From NCBI GenBank assembly GCA_031255525.1, contig JAIRSJ010000090.1, forward strand, positions 1 through 32,057: a stretch of 32,057 bases of DNA, in the 5' to 3' direction. This document shows positions 4,551 through 32,057 of the stretch, one piece after another. The position numbers and the translations under genes are program-made. Position 1 is the stretch's first letter; each line of letters opens with the position of its first letter. The stretch is from Campylobacteraceae bacterium (GTDB lineage Bacteria > Campylobacterota > Campylobacteria > Campylobacterales > Campylobacteraceae). A model generated the notes under the pieces. The model had not been told where the DNA came from, ran no database searches, and was given only the letters and a program-made list of their open reading frames with translations.

Positions 4551-5719
4551 TGATTACCTCCTGCAGCATTTACGGCTTTTTTCGCGCCTTCAGATAAATT
4601 TGAGACCGATATAATATTTTTTATGCCGCTTTTTTGTAGTATTTCTTTGGCTTCATCTGCATTTGTTCCATCAAGTCTCACAACAATCGGAACATTTACT
4701 TGTGTTATTTTTGCAGCTTCCAAAATACCGTTTGCCACACGATCACATCTTACGATACCGCCAAAAATATTGATAAAAATAGCTTTTACATTTTTATCTT
4801 TTAATATGATTTCAAATCCTTTGGCCACAGTTTGAGGATTTGCGCCACCACCGACATCTAAAAAATTGGCAGGCTCTCCACCTTCATATTTTATAATATC
4901 CATAGTCGCCATAGCAAGCCCGGCACCATTTACCATACATCCGACATTTCCATTTAGTTTTACATACGAAAGATTTGAACGTTTGGCTTCTGTTTCGGCT
5001 TCATTTTCTTCGTCAAAATCTCTTAAACTTTCTATATCTTTGTGACGTACAAGCGCATTGTCGTCAAAATTGATCTTTGCGTCAAGCGCCAAAAATTTAT
5101 TCTCTTCGGTTAGTATCAAAGGATTTATTTCAACCATATCGGCATCATTGTTTATATAAGTTTTATATAGATTTGATACAAACTCCACAAAATCATTCAT
5201 TGTTTCCACGGATAATCCAAGCTTAAAAGCTGCTTCTTTACCATGAAATTTCTGAAATCCTATCGTAGGATCTATACAGATTTTTGCAATCTTATCAGGT
5301 GTATGTTTCGCAATCTCTTCTATATCGGTACCACCGCTTGAAGAGGCTATTATCATTGGCATTTCAAGAGTACGATTTAACGCTATAGAGATATAAAACT
5401 CTTGCTTTATATTAACTCCCTCTTCTATGTAGACTTTTTTTACCTCTTTTCCTTCGCTTGTCGTTTGATGCGTAACAAGCCTGGAGCCAATCATTTGATT
5501 TGTGAGACTCTTTACTTCATCAAGACTTTTTGCAAGCTTTACGCCTCCGCCAAGTCCGCGACCACCGGCATGAATTTGAGCTTTTACCACCCACACGCTG
5601 CCGCCAAGCTTTTTGGCATTTTGAACAGCCTCGTCGGCATTAAAGGCCACCTCCCCTTTTGGCGTAGAAATACCATACTTTCTTAATATCTCTTTTGCCT
5701 GATATTCGTGTATATTCAT
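4547..5719 (-). CDS. sucC: Succinyl-CoA synthetase (ADP-forming), beta subunit
   Basis: [22 protein letters not shown]...[24 protein letters not shown]-grasp SucC family. Overlaps sucD by 4 nt. Confidence 0.95.
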
Positions 5720-6655: not shown

Positions 6656-8857
6656 TTATGCTCCTATGGCATCTATGATAAGGTTAAATGTTTCACTCGG
6701 TCTCATCAGAGCAAAAGCTTTTTCATCATTCGGATGATAATAACCGCCTATATCAGCTTTTTGTCCTTGAACGCTGTTTAATTCAAGTAGTATTTTTTGC
6801 TCATTTTGCAAAAGTTTTTGATAAAAAGGTGCAAAAAATTCGCTGAGACTTTTATCATCTTTTTGATTTGCAAGAGCTTTCATCCAATAAAGCGTCAAAT
6901 AAAAATGGTTGCCGCGACTATCCAACTCGCCGCATTTTGATTTTGGAGATTTACCGTTTTGCAATAACTCTTCGGTTGCAATATCAAGTGTTTTTGCCAA
7001 TACGGCAGCTTTTTTATTACGTGCGTTTTGCGAAAAAAATTCCAATGATGCGCAAATGGCTAAAAATTCACCCAAAGAATCCCACTTTAAATGATTTTCT
7101 TCCAATAACTGCTGCATAAGTTTCGGCGCAGAACCGCCCGCTCCTGTTTCAAACAATCCTCCTCCATTCATCAGAGGCACTACAGAAAGCATCTTCGCAC
7201 TTGTTCCAAGCTCCAATATTGGGAAAAGATCTGTCAAGTAATCTCTTAAAACGTTCCCTGTTACAGATATCGTATCTTTTCCTTCGCGCATACGTTTAAG
7301 GGAAAATTTGGCGGCTTCTACGGGAGATAGAATATCTATATTTATTTTAGATAAATCATGCTCCTTTAGATACTCTTTGACTTTTGTTATAAGACTTCTA
7401 TCATGTGCTCTTTCATTATCAAGCCAGAAAATAGCGGGAGTTTTTGAAACTTTCGCGCGTTCTACCGCTAGTCTCACCCAATCTTTTATCGGAGCGTCTT
7501 TGGTCTGACACATTCTGTATATGTCACCCTTTTCCACTTTGGTCTTAAATATTATCTCATTCTTGCTATTTTTTACAATTACCAAACCTTTTTTCTCTAT
7601 GATAAAAGTTTTATCATGAGAGCCGTATTCTTCGGCTTTTTGTGCCATAAGTCCAACATTTGGGACACTTCCTATAGTTCTTGGATCGAGCGTACCGTTT
7701 TTCTTGCAATCCTCAATCACAGCTTGATAAATTTTTGCATAACATCTATCGGGAATAACGGCTTTGACTTCTTTTTGATGACCGTCTTTATCCCACATAA
7801 TACCACCGGCTCTAATCATCGCAGGCATTGAAGCGTCAACTATAACGTCATTTGGAAAATGCAGATTTGTAATGCCTTTATTAGAATCTACCATAGCAAT
7901 ATTTGGCCGTTTTTTATAAATTTCAGATATATCTTTTTCTATTGCCTCTTTTTCATTTTTGGGCAAATTTGCAATTTTTAAGTATAAATCTCCAAGTCCG
8001 TTATTTGCATTTATACCAAGCTTTTCAAATATAGTACTATATTTTTCAAATAATTCGTTAAAAAATGCCAAAACACAGATACCGAATATCACAGGATCCG
8101 ATACTTTCATCATAGTGGCTTTAAGATGCACGGAAAAAAGTACATCTTTTTCTTTTGCATCTTCAATCTCTTTTAAAAAAAACTCTTTCAAAGCTTTTAC
8201 ATTCATAAACGATACGTCTACAATTTCGCCTTTTTGCACTCTCAAGTCTGATTTTAATGTTCTTTTTTCCCCGCCTTCATCCATAAATTCGATAGATATA
8301 ACATCTTCATTGGGAAAAATATACGAATCCTCATTTCCATAAAAATCGCCGTTATCCATATAAGAAGCATGGCTTTTTGACTCTTTTTTCCATATACCCA
8401 TTTGATGAGGATTGCTTTTCGCGTAATTTTTAACGGCTTTTGGCGCGCGTCTGTCGGAATTTCCTTCACGCAAAACAGGATTTACCGCAGAGCCTAAAAT
8501 CTTCGAATATTTTGCTTTTATCTCTTTTTCTTTGTCATCTGTCGGATTTTCAGGAAAATCAGGTATATCGTAACCTTGCAACTGAAGTTCGCTTATGGCG
8601 GCTTTTAATTGTGGTATGGATGCTGAAATATTTGGCAGCTTTATGATATTTGCGTCTTTATTTTGGGTAAGATTTCCCAAATACGCCAAATCATCAGGGT
8701 AATCTAAAAAAGTGCTTAAAATTCTTCCGGATAACGAGATATCTCTTAATTCAAAATCCACATCGCATTTTTTGCCTAAAGCTTTTACTACGGGAAATAA
8801 AGAATATGTGGCAAGAGCCGGAGATTCATCGGTTTTAGTGTATATTATACGAGACAT
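6656..8857 (-). CDS. icd: Isocitrate dehydrogenase, NADP-dependent, monomeric type
   Basis: 733 aa. [26 protein letters not shown]...[12 protein letters not shown]-type motif ([22 protein letters not shown]); [17 protein letters not shown]. Confidence 0.95.
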
Positions 8858-29363: not shown

Positions 29364-32057
29364 ATGAAATATGTCATCTATGCTTCAAAGTTTTTGAATT
29401 TTTTGCTCATTTCTCTTCTTTTTATCTCTTGCGGAAATCATGACCAGGATGACCCAAACACTCCGAATAATCCGAACAATTTCAACATATCGCATATTCA
29501 AGTATCCCCCTCATTTATCAGCTTAAAGATAAACGATAAAAAGATATTAACCGTTTATGGAGTTTCAAAAGATAACTCGGTTTATACGCTTCATAATGAA
29601 GATATCAAATTTACCATAGATAAGAGCGATATAGCATCTATCAACAAAAAAGGAGAGCTGGAAGGCTTAAATGCCGGAAATGCAACCATTAAGGCAAGTT
29701 ATAATGATTTAAGCCCTTTGACAATTAGAGTCACAGTCTCGGAAGAGTTGAACACTTCAAATATCAATTCGGCATATTTTGGAAATTTATATGTAGATAC
29801 TATCCCCGAAGACTCTTCTTTGGAAAAATATGACGAAAGATTATTTGCTATGATGACAGGCAGAGTATTAGACAAAGATAATAAACCTTTAAAAGACGTA
29901 ACAGTAGCTATTCACAACTTCAATGAATACGGAAGTGTAAAAACAGACGAGAACGGCTCTTATGCTTTGCCTGTTGAGGGCGGAAAAAACATTATCGTAA
30001 GATATCAAAAGGCGGGATTTACCACTATAGATAGAGACATATATGCAAAAACGCAAGATTGGAGCATACTTCCTGACGTGAATATGTTAAAAAAAGATAC
30101 TAAAGTATCTGTTATCAATCTAAACAATTCATCCGTTCAAACGCATGTATCTTCTAAAATAGGAGATGAAAGAGGAGCAAGAAGCGCAACTATAGTATTT
30201 GAAGGAGTAAACAAGGCAAAAGCAGTAGATAAAGACGGAAACGAAAGAGAGTTAGAGAGTATAAATGTCAGAGCCACAGAGTTTGAAGTTCCGGCCTCAA
30301 TGCCATCAAATCTTCCCGATACCGTAGCATTTACATATTGTATAGACGTCACAGTCGATGGTATAAGTGATGATGAGAGTGTAGTGTTTGACGAACCTAT
30401 AGCTATGTATGTAGATAACTTTTTAGGATTTAATGTAGGAGAGATAGTACCGGTTGGGTATTACGACAGAAACAAAGGAGAGTGGATAGGTTCGGAAAAC
30501 GGGATAGTAATAAGACTTCTTGACATAAACGGTGATGGAATAATAGATGCATTAGATAGCAACAATGACGGGGAACCGGACGATTTGAACGATGATGGAG
30601 ATTTTAGCGATGAAGTGGCAGGATTACAGGATAATATAAATTATCAAGCCGGACAAACGTATATGAGAGCAAGGATAACACACTTTACACCGTGGGATTT
30701 AAATTTTGGTATGGCTCCTCCGCTTGATGCGAATTCTCCTGAAGAGTCAAATACAGACAACGATCCCAAAGGCGATTGTAAAATCCCCACAAACTCATAC
30801 ATTACCGCAAAAACACAAGTCTTGCATGAAGATATTGATATCGCGGGAACCGACATAAAACTTCACTACTCTTCTAAAAACACAAACGGATATAAAAATA
30901 CTATATCCGCTATAGTAGACACTACAAATATGGCATCTTCTGCATTTGAAGCCGACGCTATATTGGAGATAGCCGGCAAAAGATATGAAAAAAAATTGAA
31001 TAGAGGCGAAATTAATAATATAGAGTTTGAGTGGGACGGAAGAGATATGCTCGGAAACAAGTTATCAGGAGTTATAGACGGAACTATTACCGTAAGATAT
31101 AAATATAAAATGATATATTATGCCGCTTCAAAAAATTATGAAATAGCTTGGGGTAAAATAGGAACAAATCCGACAGGAATAGAGGGCATTGACAATATAG
31201 CCTATCAGTCCGTACAAAGTATCTCCGTAAGTGCAAACAGGAACAATGATGAGAATAATTTGGCTAATGGCTGGAGCATTGAAGATGATTTATATATGAA
31301 TCTAAGTCCCAAAGGAATTTTAAGTAACGCTGAAACTTTAAAATATATAGAGGTAAAAGACGGAATGCTCTTTGCTGTGGATAAAGAACCCGAAAACAGA
31401 TTCAACGGTTCGTTATTTAGAGATAATGTTTATTACGGATTAACGCTTACGAGACCTCTTCCTAGCTTTTACTCTAATCAAAACAGAGTTAATTTGATAG
31501 TAATCAATTTTCGCGAATATAAAGATTACAAGAGTGCTTACTATTCAAATCGTATCTTGTATGAATATAAAGATATTGGGTCATACTCCGAGCTTGGCTT
31601 ATATATCGCTCCAGAAGCAGAATATCCCGTTATAAATATAAACAATTATGACTATAATGCTTATTATAAAGGAACTATATTTGAAGGAATTCAAGAATAC
31701 AGTTATGCATATCTCTCTTATCCAAAAGATCTTAAAAATAAGATTAGACAAGGAGTAGAAAGCAATCAAAGCTACTACTTTACAACAAGTTCGGCTGGGG
31801 CTTTTGGCGGAGGTCCTGCTTTTTGGGTATCTTTGCCTTCAACGGAACTTTTATATAAAAAGGTAAATGATGTTCTAATACCAGATTATGATTATTCGTT
31901 AACCGATAATCCCGCCTTCTCTTTTCTTAATCTGAAAAAAACCGACATCGTCATCTTCAACTCCAACTTAGGTTATGTCTACGATGCCTCAACAGGAGTT
32001 TTAAAACAGATATTCGACAACACCATAAAACAGACAATCAGAACTTACGAACATGAC
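29364..32057 (+). CDS. Rhs/teneurin-like large lipoprotein, N-terminal part (3' truncated by window edge)
   Basis: Hand translation is open for 898 codons to the last base. Signal peptide with lipobox LFISC; Big_2-like (ISHIQVSPSFISLKINDKKILTVYG...GLNAGNATIKAS); carboxypeptidase-regulatory-like (MTGRVLDKDNKPLKDVTVAIHN...TDENGSYALPV); DINGDGIIDALDSNNDGEPDDLNDDGD; Rhs-type segments (DIAGTDIKLHYSSKNTNGYKNT, IEFEWDGRDMLGNKLSG, NLANGWSIEDDLYM). Confidence 0.8.
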   Translation, partial: MKYVIYASKFLNFLLISLLFISCGNHDQDDPNTPNNPNNFNISHIQVSPSFISLKINDKKILTVYGVSKDNSVYTLHNEDIKFTIDKSDIASINKKGELEGLNAGNATIKASYNDLSPLTIRVTVSEELNTSNINSAYFGNLYVDTIPEDSSLEKYDERLFAMMTGRVLDKDNKPLKDVTVAIHNFNEYGSVKTDENGSYALPVEGGKNIIVRYQKAGFTTIDRDIYAKTQDWSILPDVNMLKKDTKVSVINLNNSSVQTHVSSKIGDERGARSATIVFEGVNKAKAVDKDGNERELESINVRATEFEVPASMPSNLPDTVAFTYCIDVTVDGISDDESVVFDEPIAMYVDNFLGFNVGEIVPVGYYDRNKGEWIGSENGIVIRLLDINGDGIIDALDSNNDGEPDDLNDDGDFSDEVAGLQDNINYQAGQTYMRARITHFTPWDLNFGMAPPLDANSPEESNTDNDPKGDCKIPTNSYITAKTQVLHEDIDIAGTDIKLHYSSKNTNGYKNTISAIVDTTNMASSAFEADAILEIAGKRYEKKLNRGEINNIEFEWDGRDMLGNKLSGVIDGTITVRYKYKMIYYAASKNYEIAWGKIGTNPTGIEGIDNIAYQSVQSISVSANRNNDENNLANGWSIEDDLYMNLSPKGILSNAETLKYIEVKDGMLFAVDKEPENRFNGSLFRDNVYYGLTLTRPLPSFYSNQNRVNLIVINFREYKDYKSAYYSNRILYEYKDIGSYSELGLYIAPEAEYPVININNYDYNAYYKGTIFEGIQEYSYAYLSYPKDLKNKIRQGVESNQSYYFTTSSAGAFGGGPAFWVSLPSTELLYKKVNDVLIPDYDYSLTDNPAFSFLNLKKTDIVIFNSNLGYVYDASTGVLKQIFDNTIKQTIRTYEHD

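What the first reader, a model, noticed from the sequence alone, without database searches (positions are those of the whole stretch)
29364..32057. Large Rhs/teneurin-like lipoprotein running off the window, missing from the ORF track
The longest accessory ORF at the right edge has no stop in the window, so it was not listed. It combines a lipoprotein signal, a Big_2-like domain, a carboxypeptidase-regulatory-like domain, an Asp/Gly calcium-loop stretch, and the motifs that usually precede the YD-repeat shell in Rhs-like proteins (LHYSS..., EWDGRDMLGNKLSG, NLANGWSIED). By family knowledge such proteins often continue into a YD shell and end in a variable, possibly toxic C-terminal domain with a small immunity gene behind it. 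A lipid-anchored version in a Campylobacterota-like genome could be a surface-tethered polymorphic toxin or adhesin. This is the best candidate in the window for an undescribed system.
Basis: partly seen in the sequence, partly recalled or inferred. Interest (0 to 1): 0.75.

Follow-up and report, generated by a model that had tools for sequence, protein, structure and literature searches.

The report
Teneurin-like Rhs lipoprotein, front half
A relative of Campylobacter carries the front half of a giant lipid-anchored toxin protein of the bacterial family from which animal teneurins (brain-wiring receptors) are thought to descend; one standard domain is replaced by an unknown one, and spare toxin tips are stored in arrays elsewhere in the genome.

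Summary
The ORF is real: 29364..32057 (+), 898 aa, no stop. The window is the whole contig (C42), which ends where the YD shell should begin, so no downstream DNA can be fetched and the shell of this copy is not in the assembly. A 60%-identical full-length homologue in the same genus (L003, 1953 aa) and others show the continuation: YD shell, Rhs core with the autoprotease motifs, variable C-terminus, small ORFs behind. By sequence the window protein is lipobox, Big_2, teneurin TTR, TIP, FN-plug. Its best solved match is the bacterial teneurin-like protein BiTLP (E 1e-86), then animal teneurin-2. New here: Campylobacterota, not among that paper's six phyla; the NHL propeller is replaced by an unknown ~185-aa domain shared with a second Rhs family; arrays of spare toxin tips (four in this genome) whose similarity ends at DPxG; a type II secretion system and no T6SS. 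Proposed: a surface-displayed lipoprotein carrying an exchangeable antibacterial toxin in its shell. Delivery, the new domain's role and this copy's toxin are inferred. Both structure predictions failed.

The parts
29364..32057 (+). N-terminal part (898 aa) of an NHL-less teneurin-like Rhs lipoprotein, cut by the contig end
   Evidence: Open frame; contig C42 ends at 32057; homologues; BiTLP match E 1e-86
29364..29432 (+). Signal peptide and lipobox, FIS-Cys23 (SPII type)
   Evidence: Pattern match in this protein and four homologues
29496..29708 (+). Big_2 Ig-like domain (aa 45-115)
   Evidence: Pfam PF02368, 9e-6
29829..30086 (+). Teneurin TTR-like domain (aa 156-241)
   Evidence: Pfam PF25020, 9e-13
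30087..30662 (+). TIP region (aa 242-433; borders approximate)
   Evidence: Aligned through this region with BiTLP; TIP lies between TTR and FN-plug in PMC13018210
30663..31403 (+). FN-plug (aa 434-680; borders approximate), with Cys472 and Ser478 facing BiTLP Cys719 and Ser724
   Evidence: BiTLP alignment and teneurin-2 match over aa 475-582, 8e-16; conserved Cys/Ser in homologues
31422..31976 (+). Unknown ~185-aa domain where TLPs have the NHL propeller (aa 687-871)
   Evidence: Alignments A1 and A4; no Pfam or PDB match; shared with a second Rhs family
31977..32057 (+). First residues of the YD shell, ending ...IRTYEHD at the contig end
   Evidence: Matches the start of the homologue's shell region (E 1.7e-4)

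Best explanation
The ORF is the N-terminal ~46% of an NHL-less bacterial teneurin-like polymorphic toxin. After Sec export it is lipidated at Cys23 and, most likely through the genome's type II secretion system, displayed on the outer surface. Ig, TTR, TIP and the new ~185-aa domain hold it out and probably recognise a target; the FN-plug closes a hollow YD shell holding a ~100-aa toxic C-terminus, cut off by the Rhs-core aspartyl protease and perhaps nicked at the FN-plug Ser. A small gene behind protects the producer. The tip can be exchanged by recombination between the core DNA of the main gene and spare tip/immunity cassettes. Shown by sequence: domains, motifs, homologues, arrays, boundary at DPxG, presence of T2SS genes, no T6SS marker found. 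Inferred: surface display, T2SS route, encapsulation, toxicity, target, and tip exchange as an ongoing process.
For: BiTLP match over aa 44-600 (1e-86) and animal teneurin-2/-3 over the FN-plug; full-length homologue L003 matches BiTLP at 2e-172 with YD repeats and Rhs core; R1783-D1796-D1820 in L003 has the spacing of BiTLP R2103-D2116-D2140; Cys472/Ser478 conserved; small ORFs behind the homologues' C-termini; tip arrays, core identity within genomes above that between genomes, and matches that stop at the DPTG codon; TssK absent in 14 of 14 genus genomes, GspD above cut-off in the own genome and in all four others with this N-terminus.
Against: The shell and tip of this copy are not in the assembly, so its toxin is unknown. 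No toxin activity, surface exposure or secretion was tested. The L003 tip has no Pfam or NCBIfam match. Structure predictions failed. T2SS co-occurrence is weak because three of the five genomes are one genus, and the gene in the gspN position has no Pfam match.
Confidence: 0.7

Rival explanations
1. A surface adhesin or contact receptor, as animal teneurins became, whose C-terminus is not used as a toxin.
For: Ig, TTR and FN-plug homology; PMC13018210 leaves a signalling role open.
Against: Tips vary sharply after DPxG, with different downstream genes, and are stored in arrays, which fits toxin/immunity diversification better. TLP tips of other bacteria are toxic to E. coli (PMC13018210).
Confidence: 0.12
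2. A decayed or truncated gene: the N-terminal remnant of a former toxin.
For: No shell sequence follows in the assembly; the own genome's other Rhs pieces are tips and fragments; the copy in G134 is split over several frames.
Against: The frame stays open for 898 codons to the last base of the contig with motifs intact; contigs of relatives also break in shell or tip DNA (G005 C3, G013 C82). The genome is 89% complete.
Confidence: 0.08
3. A type VI secretion Rhs effector.
For: YD shell and Rhs core resemble T6SS Rhs effectors (PDB hits).
Against: Lipoprotein signal instead of PAAR or VgrG; TssK absent in 14 of 14 genus genomes with a positive E. coli control.
Confidence: 0.02
4. A toxin or tether aimed at a eukaryote, such as the insect host or gut flagellates, rather than at bacteria.
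For: A relative comes from a termite-gut metagenome; some Rhs-type toxins act on insects (PMC13018210).
Against: Immunity-like genes between the tips point to bacterial targets. Components of insect-type toxin complexes were not searched for.
Confidence: 0.06

Closest known systems
Bacterial teneurin-like proteins (TLPs; BiTLP of Bacillus inaquosorum, PDB 9ifo/9pt5; PMC13018210)
   Same: Ig-like, TTR, TIP, FN-plug in the same order; Cys/Ser of the FN-plug; in homologues YD shell, Rhs-core Arg-Asp-Asp, variable C-terminus and small gene behind; SPII lipoprotein as in other Gram-negative TLPs.
   Different: No room for the ~327-aa NHL propeller: an unknown ~185-aa domain in its place. Campylobacterota, not among the six phyla surveyed. 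Tip arrays, which that paper's main text does not discuss under the word 'cassette'.
Orphan rhs-CT/rhsI and cdiA-CT/cdiI module arrays (PMC3150448)
   Same: Tip fragments with a piece of conserved core up to DPxG, unrelated sequence after it, and a small gene behind.
   Different: Many tips lie on other contigs than the main gene, and the main gene is a lipoprotein of teneurin type.
T2SS-dependent surface lipoproteins (PulA, InvL; PMC12802150)
   Same: Lipoprotein with a Gly/Asp-containing stretch after the Cys, in a genome with T2SS genes.
   Different: No test of secretion; the gene in the gspN position is not recognised by Pfam.
Animal teneurins
   Same: TTR and FN-plug by sequence; YD shell in the homologue.
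   Different: Lipid anchor instead of a transmembrane helix; no NHL; variable tip.

Membership tests
Bacterial teneurin-like protein (PMC13018210) | FN-plug | tested here: met
   BiTLP alignment and teneurin-2 match over aa 475-582, 8e-16
Bacterial teneurin-like protein (PMC13018210) | NHL propeller between FN-plug and shell | tested here: not met
   Only ~185 aa there against 327 in BiTLP; no Pfam or PDB match. No structure, so judged by length and sequence
Bacterial teneurin-like protein (PMC13018210) | YD shell in the same frame | tested here: inconclusive
   Contig ends at its start; present in homologues L003, G013, G092
Bacterial teneurin-like protein (PMC13018210) | TTR and TIP before the FN-plug | tested here: met
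   TTR by Pfam; TIP region by continuous BiTLP alignment
Rhs/YD-repeat polymorphic toxin | YD repeats and Rhs core with P-x4-DPxG | tested here: inconclusive
   Met in homologues; not readable in the window copy
Rhs/YD-repeat polymorphic toxin | Variable tip with unrelated sequence after DPxG | tested here: met
   Own-genome tips on C24 and the G005 arrays; the tip of the window copy itself is unknown
Rhs/YD-repeat polymorphic toxin | Toxicity neutralised by the adjacent gene | not testable with these tools
   Small genes lie behind tips; activity needs an experiment
T6SS Rhs effector | T6SS in the genome | tested here: not met
   TssK (PF05936) 0 of 14 genus genomes, E. coli control positive
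T2SS-dependent surface lipoprotein | SPII signal and T2SS genes | tested here: met
   Lipobox; GspD 3.6e-112 and GspC/E/F/G neighbours in the own genome
T2SS-dependent surface lipoprotein | GspN | tested here: inconclusive
   A gene stands where gspN would be but has no Pfam match
T2SS-dependent surface lipoprotein | Actual T2SS-dependent surface exposure | not testable with these tools
   Needs deletion and protease-shaving experiments

The most novel reading that the evidence does not exclude
A new architectural branch of the bacterial teneurin-like toxins in which the NHL propeller is replaced by an unrelated recognition domain that moves between two Rhs families, carried to the cell surface by the type II secretion system and re-armed from arrays of spare tips. 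That would name an export machinery for proteins that have none known.
Probability: 0.3. Interest if true: 0.75.

Novelty: new variant of a known kind. Interest (0 to 1): 0.5.

Why it matters
Bacterial teneurin-like proteins are the relatives from which animal teneurins are thought to descend. The 2026 study calls their superfold order invariant and their delivery unknown. A lineage without the NHL propeller would show that plug and shell can work with another domain in that place, and this genus offers a testable export route (T2SS) and a visible store of exchangeable tips.

Tried and rejected
Downstream DNA: impossible, the contig ends at 32057. Continuation elsewhere in the own genome: only orphan tips and a fragment on C24 and a stop-bearing 93-aa piece on C90, none accepted as the continuation. 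T6SS delivery: rejected. NHL in G092: its ~330 aa have the right length and, by eye, repeated D-x-x-G-N-I-Y-like motifs, but no Pfam or PDB match, so unproven. Phages: no relative; plasmids: one Streptomyces record at 30% identity. Two viral-contig scans got no answer. Transfer by base composition: ORF GC 0.357 against 0.358 for the rest of the window, no signal.

Full report
Observation. The ORF 29364..32057 (+) is real: 898 aa from ATG, no stop. The window is the whole contig C42 of a 1.53 Mb, 117-contig, 89% complete assembly, so the missing 3' part is an assembly end. It stops at ...IRTYEHD, where the homologue enters the YD shell.

What the N-terminus is. Pfam gives a teneurin TTR domain (9e-13), carboxypeptidase-regulatory-like (4e-8) and Big_2 (9e-6). 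The best solved relatives are 9ifo/9pt5, the bacterial teneurin-like protein BiTLP (aa 44-600, E 1e-86), followed by animal teneurin-2 and -3 over about aa 475-583 (8e-16 and weaker), the FN-plug. From that alignment window Cys472 and Ser478 face BiTLP Cys719 and Ser724, the disulfide and internal cleavage residues named in PMC13018210; a Cys before this Ser is kept in the homologues examined, with varying spacing. This protein and four homologues have a lipobox.

The continuation, from homologues. L003 (JAISGD010000031.1, Campylobacteraceae MAG Gx485_bin81; another bin of Gx485 comes from the termite Glyptotermes, PMC11707648) encodes 1953 aa, 60% identical over the window part. It has YD repeats and the Rhs core, matches BiTLP at 2e-172, and keeps R1783-D1796-D1820 with the spacing of BiTLP's R2103-D2116-D2140. 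Two small membrane-like ORFs follow, then a displaced copy of the shell end cut by the contig end. G013 (1568+ aa, contig ends in the shell), G092 (1835 aa) and G134 (split over several frames) are further homologues. Their chromosomal neighbours differ, as expected of an accessory gene.

The missing propeller. Between FN-plug and shell BiTLP has 327 aa of NHL. The window clade (G000, G005, G013, G134) has ~185 aa that align among themselves but match nothing in Pfam or the PDB. A profile finds 6 of 199 relatives: the four TLP-like genes and the N-terminus of a second, shorter Rhs family in G009 and G003; G003 was not in the profile (2.5e-51). So the domain is shared by two Rhs families.

Tip arrays. 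The own genome has four Rhs-core tips in a row at about C24:13-4057, with differing C-termini and small genes between, next to rpsO, hrcA, grpE and dnaK (identified by reading); the first has an in-frame TGA. G005 has tips on several contigs. Core DNA is more alike within genomes (0.85-0.915) than between them (0.765, all genomes); label permutation within the genus, 0 of 10,000. Tips in one genome are not independent, so this shows homogenisation or recent duplication, not its mechanism. Blastn of the G005 main gene against the tips: nearly all core matches stop at nt 5475-5503, the DPTG codon, with about 72-91% identity before and no match after. This is the arrangement known for orphan rhs-CT modules (PMC3150448).

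Delivery. TssK is absent in 14 of 14 genus genomes. GspD above cut-off is present in all five genomes with this N-terminus, and the own genome has an operon with GspC, D, E, F, G and pseudopilin-like genes. Six family relatives have only weaker secretin matches. At E <= 1e-70 GspD occurs in 41 of 150 relatives; three of the five genomes are one genus, so this support is weak. In G001 a second-family Rhs lies directly behind the last pseudopilin gene, and in G005 a tip array precedes an aldo/keto reductase like the one that follows that operon in the own genome. T2SS carries surface lipoproteins such as PulA, with GspN (PMC12802150). T2SS export of this protein remains a hypothesis.

Distribution and novelty. 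The N-terminal profile hits 4 of 398 genomes sampled over the phylum, one of them only by a short second-family match. PMC13018210 lists six phyla without Campylobacterota and calls the superfold order invariant; absence from that survey does not prove absence from the literature. Because NHL was tested and not met, I file this as an NHL-less relative of the TLPs and, through its homologues, with the Rhs/YD polymorphic toxins: a new variant of a known kind.

Noticed in passing
L056:3407-4057 (own genome C24); similar by eye in L060:6734-7102 and the end of L070:6718-10533: A toxin-tip C-terminus that matches serum amyloid A (PF00277, 3e-13), a family placed in the lipocone superfamily, whose members include polymorphic-toxin tips (PMC12419801).
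   Followed up: partly
L071:9152-12826, L070:6718-10533, L074:8661-11627: A second, shorter Rhs family in the genus, with Sec-type signal peptides by eye in G009 and G012, the Cys..S[YF] plug motif, and in G009/G003 the unknown 185-aa domain at the N-terminus.
   Followed up: partly
L070:6718-11283 (G001): A second-family Rhs gene starts about 210 nt behind the last pseudopilin gene of the type II secretion operon.
   Followed up: partly
L056:118-624; L058:9029-9646 and 7005-7667; L061:7064-7563: A recurring tip C-terminus with a GHG...C pattern reminiscent of caspase-like peptidases; no Pfam or NCBIfam match to that part in the two tips scanned.
   Followed up: no
L056:4769-5278 (own genome C24): A fragment resembling the shell of the second Rhs family, at the end of the tip array.
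   Followed up: no
L058:8187-8588 and 7705-8094 (G005): Two similar ~130-aa immunity-like genes in tandem between tips, as if duplicated.
   Followed up: no
L073:2904-8417 (G134): The G134 homologue is split over several frames with in-frame stops: a broken gene or assembly errors.
   Followed up: no
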